DNA from: an uncultured Kangiella sp. | GTDB lineage: Bacteria; Pseudomonadota; Gammaproteobacteria; Enterobacterales; DSM-103792 | Direction of reading: 5' to 3' | NCBI GenBank assembly: GCA_946480585.1 | Contig: CAMLKQ010000057.1 | Coordinates: 1-10,491 of the forward strand | DNA length: 10,491 bases | Part shown: positions 222 to 10,039 of the stretch, piece by piece | How the letters are laid out: the number at the start of each line of letters is the position of its first letter | Numbering within the stretch: position 1 is the stretch's first letter | Notes under the pieces: generated by a model | Told to the model about the DNA's origin: nothing | The model's input: the letters and a program-made list of their open reading frames with translations, nothing else | Databases searched by the model: none | Program-made: the position numbers and the translations under genes

Positions 222-1253
222 TCAGCCCAGCTGGGGCAGGTAGTGGCGCAAGGTGCTGGGCAGTTGTCCGGTCCAACGCTTGAACGAACGGCGGAAGTTG
301 GTGCGGTCCTGAAAGCCGAGATGATCCGCCACCGCTTCGCTGTCATAGCCACGGCCCCAGTAAAGATAGAGCGCCACATGCTTGCGCACGGCATCATGCA
401 AGGCCTGAAAGCACCAGCCATGAGCCTTCAGCCTGCGCTTGCAGGTGGCCGGGCTGATACCGAGGCTGGTAGAGACAGTTTCAAGACTGCAACCCGTCCG
501 CACCGATTGCAGCATCTGCGCAAATACCTGCTCGACAAAGCTGCTACCGGCAAACATCGGCTGCTGCGCGAGCCGCTGCCGCGCCAATGCCGCCACCGTC
601 TGCGAAGCCCGCGGCCATGGCGCGAGAAACAGCGCGCGCGGCAGCACCATCGCATCGACCTGACAGTCGAAGTGCAAAGACTCGCCCAAGTGGGCTTGGT
701 ACTGCTCGCAGTAGGCAGGTGCGCGGTGGCTAAACAGAAATTGCCACGGCCAACGTTCACCGCTTTGCCAACGGCACATTGCCGTGACTGCCGTCATGCT
801 GGCTTCCACCAGCTGCGGACGCAAACTACCCGCACCGCAGACATCGAGCCAGTACAAACAAACATACCGCTCGTCCAGATGCAGCCGCGGTGCCAGCAAC
901 GGACTCAAGCGGCTGCGCTGCTGCAAAAGCAAATCGAGCGCGTCGGCAAAATGGCCGGCATGCGCCAACGCCGTACTGAGTTCACCATAATGGCCGGGCA
1001 ACAACCGGTGCCCGAGCTGAAAGCTGGTGTCGTTCGCGCCAAGCAGTTCTACTGCATTGCCGAACAAGCGCAGATACTGCTGCGGGCTGATCATCCGCTC
1101 GCTATCCAGCTGTTCCAGAAACAGGCCGGTACCACGCAGCAAGCGGTGGCTGTCGACATCCCGGGTCAATGCCAAATCGATCAGACAGGCCGGTTGCTCA
1201 TGCACCGGAATGACGCGGTCATCGCGTTCATAGCAGGCGACCAGCGCTGACAT
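222..1253 (-). CDS. AraC-family transcriptional regulator (OruR/ArgR-like)
   Basis: This is a predicted cytoplasmic DNA-binding regulator of 343 aa. The C-terminal part has the two helix-turn-helix units of the AraC family. The first is at about 255-278 (LGISPATCKRRL). The second is at about 303-336, with the family signature LGFQDRTNFRRSFKRWTG. The N-terminal ~200 residues fit the arabinose-binding-type domain found in OruR/ArgR/GadX-like regulators, a region that senses an unknown ligand. Total length is typical of that subfamily. The ATG at 1253 lies 21 bp after the stop of the upstream GGDEF gene on the same strand, which suggests an operon. No strong Shine-Dalgarno precedes it, so translational coupling is possible. 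The ligand and target genes cannot be read from the sequence. The adjacent phosphate locus is transcribed divergently from the promoter region of this operon, so it is one candidate target, but only by proximity. Confidence 0.9.
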   Translation of the reverse strand: MSALVACYERDDRVIPVHEQPACLIDLALTRDVDSHRLLRGTGLFLEQLDSERMISPQQYLRLFGNAVELLGANDTSFQLGHRLLPGHYGELSTALAHAGHFADALDLLLQQRSRLSPLLAPRLHLDERYVCLYWLDVCGAGSLRPQLVEASMTAVTAMCRWQSGERWPWQFLFSHRAPAYCEQYQAHLGESLHFDCQVDAMVLPRALFLAPWPRASQTVAALARQRLAQQPMFAGSSFVEQVFAQMLQSVRTGCSLETVSTSLGISPATCKRRLKAHGWCFQALHDAVRKHVALYLYWGRGYDSEAVADHLGFQDRTNFRRSFKRWTGQLPSTLRHYLPQLG

Positions 1254-1274: not shown

Positions 1275-2228
1275 TCAGGCGAAAACAGCGGTAGCGCGCG
1301 GCGCGCCCGGGAGCGGTACTTGCCCCAACCGGGCAAGCAACTGATCCGCCGAATCGTTTTGCCCCGGCATCACGGTCAGCACTGATGCGCTCAGCTGCAC
1401 GCGCACACCACGCGCCGTGCGATAGGCCAGCGTCGCAACGGCCGCCGCCAGATCGGCCGCGATGTGGTGGGCCGTTTCCATTGAGGTCTCAGGCAGCAAG
1501 GCGACAAAGCGATCACCCGCCAGGCGGCACAACAAATCGCCTTGGCGCAAATTGAGCAACAACAACTGGCTCACCGCCTGCAAAGCGCGATCGCCCTCAG
1601 CAAAACCCTGCTCACGATTGACTGCCGTAAACTGATTCAGATCGAGCGCCACCAAAGCAAAACCGGCGATACCTCCGCGCGGCACGAGCGACAGCTCACG
1701 CTGCAATTGGCGGCGCAGATAGGCGGCGCCCGTCAAAGGCAGCAGTGCGTCAAAATGGCGATGCTCACGAAACAGCCGCTCGCGCTTGTTCATCTGGACA
1801 TTGAGCACCAGTTGTTCCTGATGCCAGTGATAAATACCGAAGGTCAGCACCAGCAAGCCGACTGGCATTGTGGCCGACTCGAGCCAGTGATCCCACTGCG
1901 CGCTATCCGGCAGCCGGAAAAATTCATCCAGCGCATCGGTCCACATGGCGAGAAAGACCAGCGACAACCCCCAGCACAGAAAACGGGTCACCCGACCACC
2001 GGGCCGACTGCGCAGCACCCAGTTGAGCCAGCTGAAAATCAGGATCGCAGTGCCGCCTTCACCCAGGATGTCGAGCCAGACCCATTGCGTACTGGTTTTG
2101 CCGCTACCGTGCCAAGCCATGGCGAACAGGATCAGCAGCGCGGCAAGCACTACCGGCAGCAACCACACCAACGGGCCATAACGGCGCTGATGGTTCAAAC
2201 CCGCGTATGACAAGAACGACCGCAACAT
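1275..2228 (-). CDS. Membrane protein with degenerate GGDEF domain (AGDRF, I-site retained)
   Basis: This is a predicted inner-membrane signalling protein of 317 aa. Four hydrophobic segments lie near residues 20-39, 54-72, 83-98 and 121-135. A charged linker follows (about 137-157), then a GGDEF domain (about 159-303). The active-site loop reads AGDRF (237-241) instead of GG[D/E]EF, so the first Gly and the conserved fourth-position Glu are lost. Other landmarks remain: D196 of the metal-binding strand, N204 and D213 for guanine contact, and an RxxD inhibitory-site motif at R228-D231 in the canonical spacing. This points to a weak or inactive cyclase that may still bind c-di-GMP; that is inference. 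I chose the ATG at 2228, which has AGGTG six bases upstream. An in-frame TTG at 2243 would add five residues but has poor ribosome-binding context. The AraC regulator follows after 21 bp and is probably co-transcribed. Confidence 0.85.
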   Translation of the reverse strand: MLRSFLSYAGLNHQRRYGPLVWLLPVVLAALLILFAMAWHGSGKTSTQWVWLDILGEGGTAILIFSWLNWVLRSRPGGRVTRFLCWGLSLVFLAMWTDALDEFFRLPDSAQWDHWLESATMPVGLLVLTFGIYHWHQEQLVLNVQMNKRERLFREHRHFDALLPLTGAAYLRRQLQRELSLVPRGGIAGFALVALDLNQFTAVNREQGFAEGDRALQAVSQLLLLNLRQGDLLCRLAGDRFVALLPETSMETAHHIAADLAAAVATLAYRTARGVRVQLSASVLTVMPGQNDSADQLLARLGQVPLPGAPRATAVFA

Positions 2229-2315
2229 CGACAACACCTGCAACCTGTTTGTAACAGTCGGCAGTTCAACACGGCCAGATGACGTTGCCGTGTCAGCCCA
2301 TGTCGCTACGGGTCA

Positions 2316-2434
2316 AATCAGCTCAGTGCAAATTGCGTCAGGCGTTGTGATGCCGCCAGTGACGCGGATGAGACACGCCACGCCGGCCGTCGAACGCGGA
2401 CGATGGTCCGTTTTAACCCGGTTCAATCAGCTCA
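2316..2434. repeat. Direct repeat AATCAGCTCA (two copies) in the divergent intergenic region
   Basis: AATCAGCTCA occurs at 2316-2325 and again at 2425-2434, each preceded by GGT and two bases that differ. The two copies are 109 bp apart in the non-coding stretch between the divergent GGDEF/AraC operon and the receptor. They could be binding sites for a local regulator such as the AraC protein, but a 10-bp repeat can also arise by chance. Apart from these and the Pho-box-like element, I see no small ORF or RNA gene in 2229-2586 that I can support. Confidence 0.35.
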
Positions 2435-2488: not shown

Positions 2489-2522
2489 CTGTCATCGAAC
2501 TGCCATCTGCTGCCCCTAGCGT
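2489..2522 (+). promoter_or_regulatory. Putative Pho box (PhoB site) and weak -10 upstream of the receptor gene
   Basis: CTGTCAT (2489-2495), spacer CGAA, then CTGCCAT (2500-2506) form two 7-bp half-sites at 11-bp periodicity. The known PhoB consensus is CTGTCAT, a 4-base A/T-rich spacer and CTGTCAY. The first half-site matches fully and the second at six of seven positions; the spacer is less A/T-rich than usual. Ten bases downstream is TAGCGT (2517-2522), a poor (3 of 6) -10 element at the distance expected for PhoB-activated promoters, where the Pho box replaces the -35. Transcription would then start near 2529, giving a leader of about 58 nt to the GTG at 2587. Regulation by phosphate starvation fits the phytase and phosphatase genes downstream. 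Confidence 0.6.
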
Positions 2523-2586
2523 GCGCCCCAGTTGCGGCAGCGTCTCCGCCGCTTGCCGTCGTATTTCCAATCGGGAGAGTTGTCAC

Positions 2587-5094
2587 GTGAAGCACCATCA
2601 AGCCGCGCTCGCCGGCCCGCTGTTTCGCCGGAGCATGTTGGCTCTGGCTGTTGCCACCGGTCTGGCCGCACAGGCCGCCGAGCAAGCCCCTGCCCCAACC
2701 CTCGACGCGGATAGCGAAGTGGTCCGCATCGAAGTGATCGGTCAGGCCGCCAGCCTTGAACAATCGCTGCGCGACCAGCGCGCCTCGGACCGCATCGAAA
2801 GCGTGGTCAAGGCGGACGGCATCGGCCAGTTGCCGGATGACAACGCCGCCGAAGCCTTGCAGCGCGTGCCGGGCATTTCGATTGAACGCGATCAGGGCGA
2901 AGGCCGCTTCATTCGCGTCCGTGGCTTGAGCCCGGATCTGAATGCCGTGACCATCAATGGCTCACTGGTGCCAGCACCGGAAAGCGAACGCCGCGCCGTT
3001 GCGCTCGACGTGCTGCCAGCTGAGCTGGTGCAATCGGTGTCGGTGGTCAAGACACTGACGCCAGACATGGACGCGAACTCGCTTGGCGGCACTGTCGAAG
3101 TCGAAAGCCTGTCGGCCTTCGATTACAAAGGCGGCTTCTACAGCCTGAGCGCCGAAAGCAGCTACGACGACAACACCGGCGAATACAGCCCGAAATACGC
3201 CGCCGCGTTCAGCAGCCGACTCGGCACTGACGAGCGCTTCGGCATTGCTGCCGCCATCAATTTTCATGACCGCACCTTTGGTTCTGACAACGTCGAGACC
3301 GGTGGTGACTGGGATTTTGATGACGCCGCCCGGCTCGCCAGTGTCGAGCAACGGGATTACAGCATCGAGCGCGAGCGGATCGGCGCGGCGCTGAACTTCG
3401 ATTATCGCCCGGATGACGACAGCAAATACTGGTTGCGCACGCTGTACAGCCGCTTTGCCGATCAGGAATACCGGCAGCTGCTGAAAGCCGAGTTTGAAGA
3501 CGCGCTGGCCGACGGCGAAACCGGCGCGGTCGAAGTCGAGCGTGAACTGAAAGACCGGGAAGAAACCCAGACCATCTATTCCCTTGTCATCGGCGGCGAC
3601 AAGCAATTCGACCGCTGGCGTGTGGCAGGCCAGCTCGGCTACGGTCGCGCCGGCGAAGACAATCCAGACCAACTCGATCCGGCAGTGTTCACCGCTGACG
3701 GTGGCTCCGGCGGTTTCCGCAATACCCGGCGGCCGCAACTGCAACTCGACGAGGCGTTCTATCAGGCCGAAAACTTCGCGCTGGATGAGGCCGAACTCGC
3801 CGACAGCGAGACCACTGATACCGAACACAACGCCCGGCTCGACTTCAGCCGCGATTACAGCTGGGGCGAAGCCGATGCCACGCTGAAATTCGGCGCCAAG
3901 CTGAGCCGCCGCGAAAAAGACAATGATGTGGACGTGTGGGCATTCGAAGACTTCGGCGATTACGGCATCAGCGATGAGGCACTGAGCCTTACCGCACTCA
4001 GCAGCGGCAGCGTCGATTACGCGTATGGTCAGTTTGGCCCTGCCATCGCCAGTGGCGCGGTGCGAAATCTGTTGGCTCAGCTCGACCGCAGCGAATTTTT
4101 CGATGAGGAAGCCTCACGCATTGAAGACTTCAACATGCAGGAAGACATCGACGCCGGTTACCTGATGCAAACGATGAACTGGGACAACTGGCGCGTGATC
4201 GCCGGCGTCCGGTTCGAAAGCACCCGCTTTGAAGCCGAAGGCACCGGCTTGCGCGATGGCGAATTCGAAGCCGTGACCGCCAAACGCGATGATAAGCACT
4301 GGCTGCCCGGCCTGCACGGCCGCTACCTCCTCGGCGACAACACCCAGATCCGACTGGCGCTGACCCACAGCGTGGTGAGGTCGACCTTTGGTGAACGGGC
4401 ACCGGGCTTTGTCATCGATGGCGATGAAGCCGAGTTCGGCAATCCGAACCTGAAGCCGCTGGAAGCGCGCAATCTGGACGCCGGCATCGAACATTTCTTT
4501 GGCAAGGCCAGCGTGCTGTCGGCGTTTGTCTTCCACAAGGACATCGACAACTTCGTTTACCAGACCGATCTGGCTGGCAGCGGCGACTGGCTGGACTTTG
4601 ATGAAGCGATCAGCTTCGCCAACGGCGACAGCGCCAGCGTCTATGGTCTGGAGCTGGCCTGGTCACAGAAGTTTGCCAATGGTTTCTTGCTGGCCGCCAA
4701 CACCACGCTGACCGACTCTGACGCCGAGATCGAAAACGGCAGCGGCGATGTCCGTGACATCAGCTTGCCAAGCCAATCCGACACCACCGGCAATATCACC
4801 ATCGGCTACGAGAATGAGCGCTGGAGCCTGCGCCTGACCGGCAACTACAAGTCGGAATACCTGTACGAAATCGCCGATGTCAGTGACGAACAATACGATG
4901 TCATCGTCGACAGCCAGACACAGTACGATCTGTCGGCGCGGGTATTCCTGAGCAAAGGCCTGCAACTGTATGTTGAAGCACGCAACCTCGGTGACGAGCC
5001 CTACTATGCTTATACCGGCCGGCGCGCCTACAACCACCAATATGAAAGCTACGGCCCGAGCTACGCCGTCGGCATCAGCTACAGCCAATTCTGA
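2587..5094 (+). CDS. TonB-dependent outer-membrane receptor, probably for phytate or another phosphorylated substrate
   Basis: This 835-aa protein is a TonB-dependent receptor of the large 'TonB-Xanth-Caul' type. The signal peptide covers residues 1-30, with probable cleavage after AQA (A30|A31). A TonB-box-like stretch (EVVRIEVI) lies at about 44-51. The plug domain spans about 66-175, with the hallmark FIRVRGL at 108-114 and SLGGTVEVES at 165-174. A 22-strand-type barrel fills the rest and ends in an aromatic residue (F835), as expected for BamA-dependent insertion. The GTG at 2587 is chosen because GGGAGAG lies at 2573-2579 and the signal peptide starts here; the frame is open back to 2521, but that extension precedes the likely transcription start. 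Receptors of this class are often encoded next to beta-propeller phytases in Gram-negative bacteria. The phytase gene begins 61 bp downstream, so import of phytate or its products is the best guess. The substrate is not readable from the sequence. Confidence 0.93.
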   Translation: MKHHQAALAGPLFRRSMLALAVATGLAAQAAEQAPAPTLDADSEVVRIEVIGQAASLEQSLRDQRASDRIESVVKADGIGQLPDDNAAEALQRVPGISIERDQGEGRFIRVRGLSPDLNAVTINGSLVPAPESERRAVALDVLPAELVQSVSVVKTLTPDMDANSLGGTVEVESLSAFDYKGGFYSLSAESSYDDNTGEYSPKYAAAFSSRLGTDERFGIAAAINFHDRTFGSDNVETGGDWDFDDAARLASVEQRDYSIERERIGAALNFDYRPDDDSKYWLRTLYSRFADQEYRQLLKAEFEDALADGETGAVEVERELKDREETQTIYSLVIGGDKQFDRWRVAGQLGYGRAGEDNPDQLDPAVFTADGGSGGFRNTRRPQLQLDEAFYQAENFALDEAELADSETTDTEHNARLDFSRDYSWGEADATLKFGAKLSRREKDNDVDVWAFEDFGDYGISDEALSLTALSSGSVDYAYGQFGPAIASGAVRNLLAQLDRSEFFDEEASRIEDFNMQEDIDAGYLMQTMNWDNWRVIAGVRFESTRFEAEGTGLRDGEFEAVTAKRDDKHWLPGLHGRYLLGDNTQIRLALTHSVVRSTFGERAPGFVIDGDEAEFGNPNLKPLEARNLDAGIEHFFGKASVLSAFVFHKDIDNFVYQTDLAGSGDWLDFDEAISFANGDSASVYGLELAWSQKFANGFLLAANTTLTDSDAEIENGSGDVRDISLPSQSDTTGNITIGYENERWSLRLTGNYKSEYLYEIADVSDEQYDVIVDSQTQYDLSARVFLSKGLQLYVEARNLGDEPYYAYTGRRAYNHQYESYGPSYAVGISYSQF

Positions 5095-5103
5095 GTCAGG
5101 GTT

Positions 5104-5143
5104 GGTCGCTGCGCTGGTAGCCACTGCACAGCGACCCTTTTTT
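5104..5143 (+). terminator. Intrinsic-terminator-like hairpin between receptor and phytase
   Basis: GGTCGCTG (5104-5111) pairs perfectly with CAGCGACC (5129-5136) across a 17-nt loop. One C follows, then six T residues (5138-5143). The loop contains TGG-TAG-CCA, which could add a small inner stem. The layout is that of a Rho-independent terminator. It sits between the receptor stop (5094) and the phytase start (5156), and the T-run is directly followed by the phytase ribosome-binding site AAGGA (5144-5148). It may be a partial terminator or attenuator within an operon, or it may end the receptor transcript, in which case the phytase would need its own promoter. I see no good promoter in the 61-bp gap. 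Confidence 0.75.
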
Positions 5144-5155
5144 AAGGACCGATTC

Positions 5156-7144
5156 ATGTTTTCGACTTTACCGTCGCGCGCGCCACAACGGCTGCTGCTG
5201 TCGCTGTGCCTTGCCATTGTGATCTCCGGGTGCGAGCAACCGGCACCTGAAAGCAACGAGCAAGCAGCGCCTACCGCAGCGACGACCAACACACCGATCG
5301 CGACACTGAGCTTGCAACCACTGGCAACTGCCCGCGAATGGGCCGTCGATGCCGCACAGCTGTTGCCGGACACGGCTGTATGGCAGGGTATCGAACGCGT
5401 CGTTGCCAGCCCGCGCCAAGGATTGCTGCTGCTGGATGCAAACGGCAACGTTCGCAGCAAGCTTGATGGCCGCTTCGACACGCTCGACAGTCGCGGCCAC
5501 GGCGAAGCGTCACGCTGGCTCGCCAGCTACGACCGCATCCGACATCAGGTTGTGGTGTTGTCGCTGCACGCTAGCGAGCCGCATTTCGGTACCCCACTCT
5601 ATTTGCCGCGCCTGTCATTTGGCGTCGAATCCGTTTGCCTCTATCGCGACCGCGACAACCTTTTGCAGTTGTTCGTTATTGGTGAAGAGGGTCGCGGGGA
5701 ACACTGGTTGCTCGGTACCGATGACAGCTTGCTGCCAGAAGCAAAACCTTTGCGGCAACTGAGCTTGCCGCCGACCGCCAAGTTCTGTGCGGTCGATGAT
5801 GCGGCGGATGCCTTGTACGTCAATGAAGAAGGGGTTGGTGTCTGGCGTTATCCGGCCGCCGCCGAAACCGATCTGAATCGGGAGGTGATTGCTTTGGTGG
5901 AGCCACATGGCCCGCTCGGCAGCGCCGATGGGTTGGCGAGTGCCGCCGGCGACGTCTTGATTGTCGATGGCGAAAACACCAGCTTGCATCGTTATCAGTA
6001 TCGCGAAGCGCGCTGGCAGGCGCTGCCGCCGCTCGCGCTGGCGGGTACCGAACAGCCGGAACAACTCGCGGTGCAACGGCAAGCCGAGCAGCTGCACTTG
6101 TTGCTGCGCGACGACGACAGCGATCAGTTTTTCCGCACCACGCTGACCATCGCTCAGACACCCGACGCGCCCGCCTCGATACCGGCCGTACCGGCCCGGG
6201 TGCAAACCGAGTTTGTGGTAAGCGAAGGCGATGCTGCAGATGATCCGGCGATCTGGCAACACCCGACCGAGCCCGGAAAAAGCCGTGTGCTGGCAACCGA
6301 CAAAAAATTCGGCCTGCTGGTTTACGATCTGAACGGCAAACAGCTGCAAGCTTTGCCGAGTGGAGACATCAACAACATCGATATCCGCACCGGCTTCAGT
6401 TGGCAAGGAAAAACCGTCGATGTGGCCGTGGCCGGCAACCGCAGCTTCAACAGCCTGACCGTTTACAGCATTGCCCGCGACAGCGGCGTTGTGACCGAGC
6501 TCGGCAATTTGCCAGTGGCGATGACGGAGATCTACGGACTCTGCCTGTATTCGCCGCGTGCCGGCGAAATCCACGCCATTCCAAACGACAAGGACGGCCG
6601 TTTCCTGCAATACCGACTGGCCAGCAACAACGGAAAGCTGGCGCTGGAACTGTTGCGCGAATTCAGCCTCGCCAGCCAACCAGAAGGCTGTGTTGCCGAT
6701 GATCGCAACCAGCAACTGTATGTTGGTGAGGAAGACGTCGCGGTCTGGACGCTCGCCGCCAATGCCGACGCAGCGACCACGATGACGGAAGTGATCCGGG
6801 CCGGTGCAGGTATCGAGGCTGACATCGAAGGCATCGGCATCTGGCAGAACGCCGAGCGCAGCTATCTGGTGATTTCCAGTCAAGGCGACGACAGCTATGT
6901 CGTGCTTGACGCGAAACCACCTTTCGCATCGCGCGGTCGTTTCCGTGTAGGCATCAATATCGAGACCGGGATCGACGGCGTTTCCGAAACCGATGGACTG
7001 GAGGTCAGTGCCGGCAATTTCGGCGGTGCCTTCAGCGAGGGTTTGCTGGTGTTGCAGGACGGCCGCAAGCGGCTCCCGCAAGGCAAGCAAAATTTCAAAT
7101 ATGTCGCATGGTCGGACATTCGCAGCAGCTTGAAACTCGACTGA
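5156..7144 (+). CDS. Beta-propeller phytase (3-phytase type), tandem-domain lipoprotein
   Basis: This 662-aa protein is predicted to release phosphate stepwise from phytate in a Ca2+-dependent way, from the outer membrane or periplasm. It has a lipoprotein signal with lipobox ISGC (lipidated C26). The C-terminal domain (about 348-662) carries both signatures of the family: DAADDPAIW (359-367) and NNIDIR (406-411). It also has PEG (509-511), EEDVAVW (525-531), DIEG (556-559), SSQGDDS (574-580) and DGVSETDGLEV (607-617), which match metal- and phosphate-site loops. The N-terminal domain (about 62-345) is a diverged copy: DTAVW (72-76) replaces DDPAIW, TLDSR (109-113) replaces NIDIR, and EEGVGVW (224-230) mirrors EEDVAVW. 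The layout resembles known dual-domain phytases with an incomplete first propeller. The ATG at 5156 is supported by AAGGA at 5144-5148 and by the lipoprotein signal; the frame is open upstream into the receptor gene, but that extension is not credible. Confidence 0.95.
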   Translation: MFSTLPSRAPQRLLLSLCLAIVISGCEQPAPESNEQAAPTAATTNTPIATLSLQPLATAREWAVDAAQLLPDTAVWQGIERVVASPRQGLLLLDANGNVRSKLDGRFDTLDSRGHGEASRWLASYDRIRHQVVVLSLHASEPHFGTPLYLPRLSFGVESVCLYRDRDNLLQLFVIGEEGRGEHWLLGTDDSLLPEAKPLRQLSLPPTAKFCAVDDAADALYVNEEGVGVWRYPAAAETDLNREVIALVEPHGPLGSADGLASAAGDVLIVDGENTSLHRYQYREARWQALPPLALAGTEQPEQLAVQRQAEQLHLLLRDDDSDQFFRTTLTIAQTPDAPASIPAVPARVQTEFVVSEGDAADDPAIWQHPTEPGKSRVLATDKKFGLLVYDLNGKQLQALPSGDINNIDIRTGFSWQGKTVDVAVAGNRSFNSLTVYSIARDSGVVTELGNLPVAMTEIYGLCLYSPRAGEIHAIPNDKDGRFLQYRLASNNGKLALELLREFSLASQPEGCVADDRNQQLYVGEEDVAVWTLAANADAATTMTEVIRAGAGIEADIEGIGIWQNAERSYLVISSQGDDSYVVLDAKPPFASRGRFRVGINIETGIDGVSETDGLEVSAGNFGGAFSEGLLVLQDGRKRLPQGKQNFKYVAWSDIRSSLKLD

Positions 7145-7167
7145 CACCACGCACGTTCAACCAGAAA

Positions 7168-7191
7168 ACGGCATGCCTTCGCGCATGCCGT
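7168..7191 (+). other. Intercistronic perfect hairpin between phytase and phosphatase genes
   Basis: ACGGCATGC (7168-7176) and GCATGCCGT (7183-7191) form a 9-bp perfect stem with a six-base loop CTTCGC. There is no T-run after it on the plus strand, so it is unlikely to terminate the operon. It ends six bases before the ribosome-binding site AAGG (7197-7200) of the phosphatase gene. It may stabilise the upstream mRNA or tune translation. On the minus strand a short TTTTC follows, but no gene there needs a terminator. Confidence 0.55.
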
Positions 7192-7207
7192 CCGTCAAGG
7201 TATTCCC

Positions 7208-8482
7208 ATGTCATTCAAGTATTTGTTTGGCAGCAGCGTGTTGCTGCTGGCCGCCTGCCACAGTGAAACGCCAAAACCGAGTGAGACCATCCACTTTCTC
7301 GCCTTTGGCGACAGTGGCTATCACATGGATTATCTCGAGCCGGAGGAATACAACCCGCCCTATCCAACGCCAGAGGCCTTCATTGCCATGGAGCGCGCCG
7401 AGTGGCTGGAAGACAAAAAGCCCATCGCCGACTTCCGGCCATCACCGATGTATTTCCACCCGAGCCTGAAAAGCTATGTGCCGGCCAGCGGCTTGTTGCC
7501 GGTCTCGCAGGCGATGAAAACCAGCTGCAAGCAGCATGGTTGCGATTTTGCGGTCATGCTCGGCGACAACATCTATCCAGACGGCGCTACCCTGGGTGCT
7601 GATGGCCATGACGATGGCACGCGCTTTCAGAAAGTGTTTGATGCGCCTTACGCCGATCTGGGCTTGGGCAAGCCTGGCTTCAAAACCTATGTCACGCTGG
7701 GCAATCACGACTGGAATACCTCGCGCGAAGGAGCGCTGGCGCAGGTCGACTACCTGAAAGCCCATCCGGCGTTTTATATCGACGGATTTTTCTATCGGGT
7801 GAAGCCGGCAGCGGCGAACGGACTGGTCGAGCTGTTCATTGTCGATACCGAGCTGCTGCTTGGCAGCACCACGGTGTACGACGACAAGCTCGCCGATGAC
7901 GGCAGCGAAATTCGCCATCAAGAATTGGACAAGAACGATCCCTGGGCCATGCCGCAAACGGACGCCGAACACCGGCAGCTGGACTGGTTACGCGAGGCGA
8001 TGCAAAACTCCGACGCGAAATGGAAATTTCTCGTCGCGCATCATCCGGTTTGGGCATCGAGCGGCAGCAAATTTGAACAAGGTCATGCGCTGCGCAAGTT
8101 GTTGATGCCGATCGCCTGCCGCTATGCCGATGCCTGGTTCGCCGGCCATGAGCACACGCTGGAATTGCACGAAGACAGCTGCGCCGGCACCGGCGTCGAC
8201 ACCGCGTTCAAGAACCTGCCGCCGTTACCGCAAATCGTGTCCGGCGCCGCCGCCAAACAACGCGGCGCCAACAAGGCGTTCATGGCGTATCAGAACCGTA
8301 CCTATCCGGAAAAAATCACCCACTACGTTGCCGACATGGTGTGGGGCTTTGCAAGGGTCGAACTCAGCGGTGACAGCATGCAGGTGGTGTACTACACGAC
8401 ACCGAATGATGGCAGTGGCGTACCGATAGAAAGCTATCGACACCGCCTGATCAGACGAAGTGCCGTGCTGGCGAAAAACTGA
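7208..8482 (+). CDS. Purple-acid-phosphatase-like metallophosphoesterase, lipoprotein
   Basis: This 424-aa member of the calcineurin-like phosphoesterase superfamily is predicted to hydrolyse phosphomonoesters outside the cytoplasm. A short signal ends in lipobox LAAC (lipidated C17). The five metal-binding blocks of purple or tartrate-resistant acid phosphatases are all present: DSG (35-37), GDNIY (119-123), GNHD (165-168), VAHH (276-279) and GHEH (313-316). The tyrosine in GDNIY is the position that gives purple acid phosphatases their colour. About 80 residues separate the first two blocks, more than in the small mammalian enzymes, and this stretch is rich in Tyr, Pro and acidic residues. 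The start at 7208 has AAGG at 7197-7200. The gene follows the phytase by 63 bp and probably shares its transcript. It may dephosphorylate lower inositol phosphates that the phytase leaves, which is inference. I see no intrinsic terminator in the 37 bp before the convergent tRNA. Confidence 0.92.
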   Translation: MSFKYLFGSSVLLLAACHSETPKPSETIHFLAFGDSGYHMDYLEPEEYNPPYPTPEAFIAMERAEWLEDKKPIADFRPSPMYFHPSLKSYVPASGLLPVSQAMKTSCKQHGCDFAVMLGDNIYPDGATLGADGHDDGTRFQKVFDAPYADLGLGKPGFKTYVTLGNHDWNTSREGALAQVDYLKAHPAFYIDGFFYRVKPAAANGLVELFIVDTELLLGSTTVYDDKLADDGSEIRHQELDKNDPWAMPQTDAEHRQLDWLREAMQNSDAKWKFLVAHHPVWASSGSKFEQGHALRKLLMPIACRYADAWFAGHEHTLELHEDSCAGTGVDTAFKNLPPLPQIVSGAAAKQRGANKAFMAYQNRTYPEKITHYVADMVWGFARVELSGDSMQVVYYTTPNDGSGVPIESYRHRLIRRSAVLAKN

Positions 8483-8519: not shown

Positions 8520-8596
8520 TGGCGTCCCGGAGACGATTCGAACGTCCGACCTTCCCCTTAGGAGGGGGATGCTCTATCCAGCTGAGCTACCGGGAC
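8520..8596 (-). tRNA. tRNA-Arg (anticodon CCU, reads AGG)
   Basis: The minus strand folds into a complete cloverleaf of 77 nt including an encoded CCA (complement of 8520-8522). The acceptor stem is GTCCCGG with CCGGGAC and discriminator G. The D-arm is GCTC...GAGC. The anticodon stem is TCCCC with GGGGA around loop CTCCTAA, giving anticodon CCT. The T-arm is GGACG-TTCGAAT-CGTCT with one G-T pair. The anticodon reads the rare Arg codon AGG. tRNA-Arg genes of this type can be integration sites for mobile elements, but no integrase or duplicated tRNA 3' end is visible here. It lies downstream of the decarboxylase gene on the same strand, with its own likely promoter. Confidence 0.97.
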
Positions 8597-8644: not shown

Positions 8645-10039
8645 TTAGCCCAGACGCTCCAGCGCCTGCGTCAATGCTGCAACAATGCGGTCAATATCGG
8701 AGTCTTCCGTGCGCCAGTTGCTGAACGCGGCGCGGACGCCCCAGGTGCCCTGATACACCGTCGGTGTAAGAAACACTTCACCGTCATCGCGCAGCAAACG
8801 GACCAGCGCCTGGATGCGTTCCGCCGTCGGTCGGTCGGCCAGGCTGAAGCAAACCACGTTGAGCCGGGTCGGTGCGAGCAACTGCAGACGCGGTTCCTGC
8901 GCCAATTGCCTGCTCAGGGCATCCGCCAACGCGACATTGCGGGCAACGATGTCGGCATGGCCGGCGCGCCCATACGCGAGCAGGCTGAACCACGCCGGCA
9001 AGGCACGAAAGCGGCGAGAATTTTCCGGCGTCAGATGCACGAAATCCGGATCGCCAGTCGGCATACCGAGATAGACCGATGCGTTCTGGAACACCCGGAC
9101 TTGCAAATCTTGACGACGGCTGAATTGCACGGCGCTGTCATAAGGCACGTTGAGCCATTTGTGCAGATCGATGCAGATCGAATCGGCCAGCTCCAGCCCT
9201 TTCAGTTTGTCGGCATGCTCCGGCAGCAGGCGGGCAAAGGCGCCAAATGCCGCATCGACGTGCAACCAGAACGGATAACGCGCACGCAACGCGGCGATCG
9301 CCGTCAGATCATCGAAGTCAACGCTGTTCACCGTGCCGGCATTGGCAACGACGATCACCGGCTGACCGGCCCTCGCCGCCAGCGCCTGCTCCAATGCGGC
9401 GACATCGACCGCTTCACGATCCGGCAGCAACGCAATTGAATGGATCGCCTTGCGCCCGATGCCGAGCATGGCCGCGGCCTTGTAGACACTGGAATGGGTA
9501 GCACCGGACAGAATCTCGATCGTGCCGAGCGCGGCAAGACCATCACTGGCGACGCTGATACCGCGCTGCTCGCCGCACCACTCGCGCGCAATCGCGAGCC
9601 CGACCATGTTGGAAACGGTGGCACCGGAGACAAAGCTGCCGGCGAATGCGGCCGGCAAATCAAACAAGTCGCGCAGCCAGGCCAACGCTTCCCGTTCCAG
9701 CAACTGTCCGGCGCCATCGAGGCTGTTCATCGGGTTCTGATCCAGCGCACTGGTCAGCCAGTCACCGGCGAGCGCGGCCGGTGTCGCGCCACCGGTGATG
9801 AAGCCAAGGTATCGAGGTCCGGCACTGGCGCTGAGCTGTGGCTGCCAACGTTCACTGAACTGATTCAGCGCAGCGGCAAAGCCGACGCCCTCGTTGGGCA
9901 AGGCGTGCGACGCTGGCAGCTCGGCACGCTGCGCTGCCGGCTGATCCGGCAACTGCTGCAAATAGCCGGTGGCGTGACGCATCACAGTTTCCAATACATG
10001 GGAAAGTGTGTCGCGTTCCTGTTGCAAACGGTCGTACAT
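8645..10039 (-). CDS. PLP-dependent group II decarboxylase family protein (substrate unknown)
   Basis: This 464-aa cytoplasmic protein fits the glutamate/DOPA/diaminobutyrate decarboxylase family (fold type I, pyridoxal phosphate). The cofactor lysine is K294 in DLHKWLNVPYD (291-301). D262 in HVDAAFGAF (260-268) should contact the pyridine nitrogen, and H182 in GATHSS (179-184) is the likely ring-stacking histidine. The AGTVNSVDFDDL stretch (234-245) and FVSGATVSNM (136-145) match the phosphate- and cofactor-binding region. Length is normal for bacterial members. The ATG at 10039 is preceded by an AGGCGAG sequence at workable distance. Family members decarboxylate aromatic or acidic amino acids, and some are aldehyde synthases or cysteine-sulfinate enzymes; I cannot choose between these. 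No transporter or partner gene lies next to it, and it appears to be monocistronic, as terminator 10136-10168 precedes its promoter region. Confidence 0.9.
   Translation of the reverse strand: MYDRLQQERDTLSHVLETVMRHATGYLQQLPDQPAAQRAELPASHALPNEGVGFAAALNQFSERWQPQLSASAGPRYLGFITGGATPAALAGDWLTSALDQNPMNSLDGAGQLLEREALAWLRDLFDLPAAFAGSFVSGATVSNMVGLAIAREWCGEQRGISVASDGLAALGTIEILSGATHSSVYKAAAMLGIGRKAIHSIALLPDREAVDVAALEQALAARAGQPVIVVANAGTVNSVDFDDLTAIAALRARYPFWLHVDAAFGAFARLLPEHADKLKGLELADSICIDLHKWLNVPYDSAVQFSRRQDLQVRVFQNASVYLGMPTGDPDFVHLTPENSRRFRALPAWFSLLAYGRAGHADIVARNVALADALSRQLAQEPRLQLLAPTRLNVVCFSLADRPTAERIQALVRLLRDDGEVFLTPTVYQGTWGVRAAFSNWRTEDSDIDRIVAALTQALERLG

What the first reader, a model, noticed from the sequence alone, without database searches (positions are those of the whole stretch)
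2489..8482. A compact phytate/organic-phosphate locus: receptor, tandem phytase and purple acid phosphatase, all surface or periplasmic
Three consecutive plus-strand genes encode a TonB-dependent receptor, a beta-propeller phytase lipoprotein with intact signature motifs, and a lipoprotein with all five purple-acid-phosphatase metal blocks. Receptor-phytase neighbours are an established association; adding a purple acid phosphatase as a second lipoprotein suggests a division of labour. In this reading the phytase removes alternate phosphates, the phosphatase finishes the lower inositol phosphates, and the receptor imports phytate or its products. The adjacency and motifs are seen directly; the pathway is inference.
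Basis: partly seen in the sequence, partly recalled or inferred. Interest (0 to 1): 0.7.

Follow-up and report, generated by a model that had tools for sequence, protein, structure and literature searches.

The report
Phytate-scavenging operon with purple acid phosphatase

Summary
The window encodes a TonB-dependent receptor (2587-5094), a two-propeller phytase (5156-7144) and a purple-acid-phosphatase-like protein, PAP (7208-8482). Receptor plus phytase is a known type: of 74 related receptors surveyed, 58 have a phytase directly downstream and 4 have a PAP, then a phytase. A PAP of either kind follows only 7 of 74.

The PAP's relatives fit the proposed division of labour. Of 80 PAP loci, 25 have a phytase within 10 kb and 20 have myo-inositol catabolism genes. 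PAP-fold enzymes seem to have joined the receptor module at least three times.

The locus is larger than reported. Divergent upstream lie an AraC regulator (222-1253) and a membrane GGDEF protein; its catalytic Glu is missing in 61 of 61 homologues. Before the receptor lie two copies of a new 16-bp motif and a Pho box. The motif precedes 55 of 55 receptors with AraC/GGDEF genes and 0 of 19 without (one of the 19 was misfiled). It also precedes unlinked PAP genes in three genomes with the receptor-phytase pair, but not in a fourth.

Best reading: a phosphate- and probably phytate-controlled regulon in which PAP continues after the phytase. Substrate and inducer are untested.

The parts
222..1253 (-). 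AraC-family regulator (PF12625 + HTH_18), divergent from the receptor
   Evidence: Pfam E 3.7e-25 and 8.6e-12; homologue plus the GGDEF partner divergent upstream of 49 of 74 related receptors
1275..2243 (-). membrane protein with a degenerate GGDEF domain (AGDRF); probably a non-catalytic regulatory partner (TTG start uncertain; membrane helices judged by eye)
   Evidence: PF00990 E 6.9e-21; 0 of 61 homologues, window included, keep Glu at the fourth position of the motif; divergent upstream of 54 of 74 receptors
2310..2325 (+). operator copy 1, GGGTCAAATCAGCTCA
   Evidence: score 26.3 with a matrix whose sites leave the window out (the window was among the 66 regions in which the motif was first found); 0 of score 26 or more in 3 Mb of shuffled window sequence
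2419..2434 (+). operator copy 2, CGGTTCAATCAGCTCA, 109 bp from copy 1
   Evidence: score 10.0; weaker copy; 51 hits of 10 or more in 3 Mb shuffled sequence
2489..2506 (+). Pho box CTGTCATCGAACTGCCAT, about 80 nt before the receptor start
   Evidence: 1 mismatch to CTGTCAT-N4-CTGTCAT (consensus recalled); 0.00067 hits of 1 mismatch or fewer per kb in simulated sequence
2587..5094 (+). TonB-dependent receptor, TIGR01782 family
   Evidence: nested among phytase-linked receptors in the tree
5104..5143 (+). 8-bp hairpin followed by six T between receptor and phytase; possible attenuator or partial terminator
   Evidence: sequence; folding not stronger than shuffles, z -0.88, so weak
5156..7144 (+). 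two-domain beta-propeller phytase, probable lipoprotein (degenerate N domain about 5294-6157, catalytic domain about 6182-7141)
7168..7191 (+). 9-bp inverted repeat without T run between phytase and PAP
   Evidence: z -1.94
7208..8482 (+). purple-acid-phosphatase-like protein (PAP), probable lipoprotein

Best explanation
This is a phytate-utilisation locus under two controls. Shown by sequence: the genes, motifs, neighbourhoods and operator. Inferred: all biochemistry. A membrane-bound degenerate-GGDEF protein and an AraC regulator probably sense phytate or a product and bind two helically phased sites; PhoB adds control by phosphate starvation. Together they switch on receptor-phytase-PAP. 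The receptor binds or imports phytate or lower inositol phosphates with TonB energy. The phytase removes alternate phosphates, which for this enzyme class ends at Ins(2,4,6)P3 (published). The PAP then takes phosphates from the lower inositol phosphates, so more phosphate (and, where iol genes exist, inositol carbon) is recovered. PAP is an optional addition to a widespread receptor-phytase module.
For: Gene identities. Module conservation: 74 receptors, phytase directly downstream in 58, PAP then phytase in 4, PAP in 3. PAP family: 25 of 80 loci with phytase, 20 of 80 with iol genes, 16 with both; 22, 19 and 15 of 55 after removing PAPs over 75% identical; one representative each of iolD, iolC and iolE scores above its NCBIfam cut-off. 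PAP joins the same receptor module in separate lineages: window clade, Pseudoalteromonas-type group (28 tips, support 1.0), and a TRAP-like PAP between receptor and phytase. Operator: 55 of 55 versus 0 of 19 (41 of the 55 supplied sites to the matrix, and one of the 19, L235, was misfiled); also upstream of unlinked PAPs in L052, L046 and L246. Spacing of the two sites follows 10.5-10.75 bp, 0 of 5000 random sets as strong. Pho box within 2 mismatches: 25 of 70 receptors versus 15 of 2964 random stretches. Literature: BPP ends at InsP3 and some environmental PAPs hydrolyse phytate (PMC12406696, sections 3, 9, 17 and 20 read).
Against: No activity data for this PAP family. The receptor-phytase pair does without PAP in most genomes (67 of 74 have no PAP downstream; P0003-type PAP found in only 3 of 70 of these genomes). 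9 of 80 PAP loci show none of the scored neighbours. iol enrichment of PAP loci over phytase loci without PAP is not significant (20 of 80 versus 2 of 25, p 0.09). In Aliiglaciecola lipolytica, which has the AraC-type module, neither unlinked PAP (L001, L171) has an operator hit of 8 or more. In the three unlinked cases with the motif the site is single and inverted relative to the gene, unlike most receptor sites. Phytase of two Pseudomonas strains showed no sign of PhoBR control (PMC5082522, passages). Hairpins in both intergenic gaps could uncouple expression.
Confidence: 0.67

Rival explanations
1. The PAP is a general phosphomonoesterase of the phosphate-starvation response (nucleotides, sugar phosphates) that happens to sit behind the phytase; no division of labour on phytate.
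For: PAPs are broad enzymes in general (recalled); a Pho box heads the operon; 9 of 80 PAP loci have none of the scored partners, and 38 of 80 follow a TonB receptor directly, some of them receptors of other clades.
Against: PAP loci repeatedly hold phytase and iol genes in separate branches of the PAP tree, and unlinked PAP genes carry the phytase module's operator in three genomes.
Confidence: 0.22
2. The PAP is itself a phytase that can replace the propeller enzyme, so the window holds two redundant phytases.
For: 8 of 8 tested genomes of the Pseudoalteromonas-type group (G013-G020) have receptor then PAP, and 7 of these 8 have no PF02333 match; some environmental PAPs hydrolyse phytate (PMC12406696).
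Against: In the window and in 25 of 80 PAP loci PAP lies near a phytase; identity to the proven PAP phytases was not measured.
Confidence: 0.25
3. The three genes are neighbours without joint expression; the PAP has its own promoter and the hairpins end the upstream transcript.
For: T-tailed hairpin at 5104-5143 and inverted repeat at 7168-7191.
Against: Gaps are only 61 and 63 bases, same strand; the sigma-70-type scan found no site in either gap; neither hairpin is strongly better than shuffles.
Confidence: 0.1

Closest known systems
Receptor-phytase pair of Pseudomonas and Alteromonadales (two-domain 3-phytase, AQX17444 clade of PMC12406696)
   Same: Same receptor clade (56-61% to the named Pseudomonas and related proteins listed), same two-domain phytase (named Pseudomonas proteins up to 52%), same divergent AraC-GGDEF pair in most surveyed loci
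   Different: The window adds a P0003-type PAP behind the phytase; none of the 74 surveyed receptors has that exact order
Flavobacterium johnsoniae phytase Fjoh_1367 / TBDT Fjoh_1368 (PMC8115612, passages read)
   Same: TonB transporter next to a phytase, both induced at low phosphate
   Different: No PAP and no AraC-GGDEF named in the passages read; different phylum
Mammalian and plant purple acid phosphatases, including wheat purple acid phytase (6giz)
   Same: Fold and metal-ligand residues
   Different: About 20% identity to mammalian and 11% to the wheat enzyme; bacterial, probably a lipoprotein; activity unknown
myo-Inositol catabolic clusters (iol; surveyed in PMC9430895)
   Same: PAP relatives sit inside such clusters with iolB/C/D/E
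   Different: No iol genes in the window itself; the word phosphatase does not occur in the main text of PMC9430895

Membership tests
Beta-propeller phytase | PF02333 match and motifs YG, EGxxxD, DxEG, DG | tested here: met
   E 6.8e-79; YG 461, EGCVAD 511, DIEG 557, DG 614 (motif list)
Beta-propeller phytase | Ca-dependent hydrolysis of phytate | not testable with these tools
   needs the protein
Purple acid phosphatase | GDxG, GDxxY, GNH(D/E), GHxH blocks with seven metal ligands | tested here: met
   D35, D120, Y123, N166, H278, H314, H316 invariant in 26 of 26; ligand roles recalled
Purple acid phosphatase | VxxxH block as printed in PMC12406696 | tested here: inconclusive
   window reads LVAHH (V to L); the metal His is kept
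Purple acid phosphatase | PAP fold | tested here: met
   model pLDDT 88.6; best PDB matches are pig and human PAP
Purple acid phosphatase | Fe-Tyr charge-transfer colour and phosphatase activity | not testable with these tools
   Tyr123 present; no protein
TonB-dependent receptor, TIGR01782 | score above curated cut-off, plug plus barrel | tested here: met
   567.9 bits against 310; PF07715 and PF00593
Active diguanylate cyclase | GG(D/E)EF active-site motif | tested here: not met
   AGDRF in the window; no Glu at position 4 in 61 of 61 homologues
Pho regulon promoter | two CTGTCAT repeats 11 bp apart upstream of the operon (consensus recalled) | tested here: met
   13 of 14 positions at 2489-2506; PhoB binding not tested

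The most novel reading that the evidence does not exclude
A previously undescribed inositol-phosphate switch: a membrane pseudo-GGDEF protein and an AraC regulator acting through two helically phased copies of GGGTCANNTNRGCTCA (a DNA loop) control a receptor-phytase regulon across Gammaproteobacteria. A bacterial PAP family belongs to that regulon in cis and in trans, and in a Pseudoalteromonas-type group has replaced the phytase.
Probability: 0.4. Interest if true: 0.75.

Novelty: new variant of a known kind. Interest (0 to 1): 0.62.

Why it matters
Propeller phytases stop at an inositol trisphosphate (PMC12406696), and I found no paper that says how such bacteria take the remaining phosphates and reach inositol (searches listed under Tried and rejected). 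The PAP family gives a concrete candidate, placed by its neighbours between phytase and inositol catabolism. A recent paper still states that purple acid phytases are specific to plants (PMC12838507, passage read). The operator and regulator pair would make a published puzzle testable: phytase of two Pseudomonas strains was seen not to follow PhoBR and was guessed to respond to phytate itself (PMC5082522, passages); the AraC-pseudo-GGDEF pair is a candidate for that response.

Tried and rejected
PAP as a conserved part of the receptor clade: rejected, PAP of either kind follows 7 of 74 receptors (in one more, L230, a PAP gene converges on the receptor).

Window PAP and the Pseudoalteromonas-type receptor-PAP pairs as one inherited unit: rejected by the trees; those PAPs form their own group of 28 tips (support 1.0) and the window receptor nests among receptor-phytase ones (FastTree, midpoint root; receptor tree read by eye without support values).

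iol genes as a mark of PAP loci against other phytase loci: suggestive only, 20 of 80 against 2 of 25, p 0.09.

Intergenic hairpins as terminators: left open, not stronger than shuffles. Placing the organism: not achieved; no whole genome is held and the closest protein relatives listed are unnamed.

Literature: in the listings of the ten searches I saw no paper on receptor-phytase-PAP loci or on an AraC-GGDEF phytase switch; (phytase, TonB-dependent receptor, AraC, diguanylate cyclase) returned 0 papers. The library lacks most subscription journals.

Full report
What is there. The three genes of the finding are real, intact and on one strand: a TonB-dependent receptor at 2587-5094 (GTG start), a phytase at 5156-7144 and a PAP-like protein at 7208-8482. 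Gaps are 61 and 63 bases. A tRNA-Arg on the other strand (8520-8596) follows. The phytase has two propellers: the C-terminal one carries the published motifs and the N-terminal one is a decayed relative of it. The PAP has the purple-acid-phosphatase fold and metal-site residues, invariant in 26 of 26 aligned sequences: the window protein and 25 that I chose from the 120 listed of 948 hits.

The core module. I searched the receptor in two orders: 46 of 293 and 28 of 295 genomes have a match at E 1e-120 or better, and examined all 74 neighbourhoods (70 fetched held already). Directly downstream: phytase 58, PAP then phytase 4, P0003-type PAP 3, UhpC-like gene 1, none of the scored genes 8. Of these 8, L184 ends inside the receptor, L242 has 2.1 kb left, L191 has a phytase that my 400-base rule did not accept, and in L230 a PAP gene converges on the receptor. 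A divergent GGDEF gene lies upstream in 54 of 74, with the AraC gene in 49. Thinned to under 80% identity, 65 receptors remain of the 73 used: phytase 51, PAP2-phytase 3, PAP 3, UhpC 1, none 7 (one receptor with a frame of 600 aa or less was dropped).

The regulator pair. The window's own genes at 222-1253 and 1275-2243 are this AraC and GGDEF pair. In 61 aligned GGDEF homologues, window included, none keeps the Glu of the GGDEF motif; 34 read AGDRF. So this is probably a membrane regulatory partner, not a cyclase.

A new operator. Counting spaced word pairs in 66 intergenic regions (window included) found TGAG-N8-ACCC in 50, where shuffles gave 0.3. The full motif is GGGTCANNTNRGCTCA. A matrix whose sites leave the window out finds two copies in the window, at 2310-2325 (26.3) and 2419-2434 (10.0). 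At score 10 or more within 700 bases, 55 of 55 receptors with an AraC or GGDEF hit have it and 0 of 19 without. Limits: 41 of the 55 supplied sites to the matrix; 2 of the 19 have short upstream sequence; and L235, one of the 19, was misfiled: its receptor frame is split, two AraC pieces lie just under my cut-off, and two motif copies (16.4, 14.2) lie ahead of the first receptor piece. In L222, one of the 55, the site counted is probably chance, but a 25.4 site lies ahead of its first receptor piece. Masked background gives 62 hits in 3.76 Mb. In 28 genomes the exact pattern occurs 13 times; by my comparison of coordinates, 10 of these lie at this locus, in 9 of the 20 genomes that have the AraC/GGDEF-type locus; the reversed control occurs once. 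The two copies lie at distances that follow the DNA helix: 46 regions with two same-strand copies, 25 distinct distances from 60 to 220 bp, period 10.5-10.75 bp, 0 of 5000 random sets as strong. That suggests a DNA loop; the distances come from related genomes.

PAP in the same regulon. Two of 80 PAP genes have the motif (12 or more) upstream: L052 (Thalassolituus alkanivorans, 22.4) and L046 (25.6). Both genomes carry the receptor-phytase pair elsewhere. A third unlinked PAP, in G1027, has it 17 bases upstream of its reading frame (15.6) and that genome has AraC-GGDEF-receptor-phytase at L223. Shuffled L046 and L052 sequence gave no hit of 22 or more in 3 Mb each. In these three cases the site is single and inverted relative to the gene, whereas receptor sites are mostly double and forward (69 of 77 instances forward). 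In Pseudoalteromonas rubra (G020) receptor-PAP with two operators (L067) and AraC-GGDEF-phytase with one (L172) lie on different contigs. Of the 27 receptors of L050-L080 with a strong match to the window's, 26 have two copies and L064 none. Against the regulon: Aliiglaciecola lipolytica has the AraC-type module (L082) but neither of its unlinked PAPs (L001, L171) has a hit of 8 or more upstream.

Phosphate control. A Pho box with one mismatch lies at 2489-2506, where simulated sequence gives 0.00067 per kb. Sites within two mismatches lie near the 5' end of 25 of 70 surveyed receptors against 15 of 2964 random 450-base stretches, and of 10 of 53 close receptors against 0 of 51 other TonB receptors in an earlier set (Fisher p 0.001). 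The two receptor sets share some genomes' relatives, and related genomes are not independent.

PAP and inositol. The scan of GTDB contigs gave 120 PAP relatives; the best 80 were kept and all 80 counted. Within 10 kb: phytase 25, iol genes 20 (iolD, or two of iolB/C/D/E), both 16, UhpC-like transporter 21, inositol-monophosphatase-like 12, sodium-solute symporter 12; a TonB receptor directly upstream in 38; no phytase, iol, TonB-receptor, UhpC, symporter or MmsA hit in 9. Thinned to PAPs under 75% identical, 55 remain: 22, 19, 15, 19, 11, 11, 17 and 9. Some loci end at contig ends, so counts are minima. NCBIfam places single representatives of iolD, iolC, iolE and MMSDH above cut-off; the iolB one is below it. 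As a comparison I took 25 phytase loci in 24 genomes from even class samples (10 of 369 and 15 of 385 genomes have a phytase; G012 left out because already held): TonB receptor 19, PAP 0, iol 2, UhpC 0; the iol difference is not significant (p 0.09). The PAP is rare: 1 of 274 genomes of the class, the query's own, and 3 of 70 receptor genomes.

Repeated recruitment. In the PAP tree the window group (window plus P0004-P0008, support 0.998) is apart from the Pseudoalteromonas-type receptor-PAP group (28 tips, 1.0). In the receptor tree the window and P0245-P0248 are next to L176 and P0249 inside phytase-linked receptors; L176 has no PAP. A different PAP sits between receptor and phytase in L082, L192, L193, L197 and L200; the L082 one matches human PAP/TRAP at E 4.4e-41. 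This suggests at least three separate entries of a PAP-fold enzyme into the module; rooting is by midpoint and the number is by inspection.

Mechanism. Published: propeller phytases end at Ins(2,4,6)P3, acid phytases at Ins(2)P (PMC12406696, sections 3, 9, 17 and 20 read). Inferred: PAP continues from the trisphosphate; where UhpC-like and monophosphatase genes are present, a monophosphate may be imported and finished inside. The TonB receptor's cargo is unknown. PMC5082522 (passages) saw no sign of PhoBR control of phytase in two Pseudomonas strains and guessed at induction by phytate. PMC2803797 (passages) reports a phytase gene (PSPPH_2990) and an AraC gene (PSPPH_2994) induced by bean leaf extract; that they belong to this module is my guess from the close locus numbers.

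Verdict. The regulator pair and operator are the newest part. PMC3400609, PMC8115612, PMC9430895, PMC9414882, PMC5082522, PMC2803797 and PMC12838507 were seen as passages only; Lim et al. 2007, cited in some of them, was not seen.

Noticed in passing
L006:7715-9079, L012:7592-8998 and 19 more of the 80 PAP loci: A UhpC/GlpT-type transporter lies in 21 of 80 PAP loci; all 12 loci with an inositol-monophosphatase-like gene also have it, hinting at import of an inositol monophosphate.
   Followed up: partly
L049:7833-9795 (Luteimonas wenzhouensis): A sugar-type ABC permease and ATPase lie between the phytase and the PAP, as in inositol importers (the likeness is recalled).
   Followed up: partly
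L155 (G654, drawn from the class of Kordiimonas): AraC-GGDEF-receptor-phytase module whose receptor nests among those of the Pseudomonas-type sample; looks horizontally acquired.
   Followed up: no
L012 and L013:1384-7574 (Steroidobacteraceae): Two different phytase genes end to end, one behind a TonB receptor and one about 700 aa long.
   Followed up: no
L012, L013, L006, L015, L017 before the PAP: A PfkB-family kinase sits before the PAP; the L013 one had no NCBIfam match at 1e-20 and a PfkB Pfam match. An inositol kinase is possible.
   Followed up: no
window 8645-10039, minus strand: Pyridoxal-dependent decarboxylase downstream of the tRNA-Arg gene; seems unrelated.
   Followed up: no
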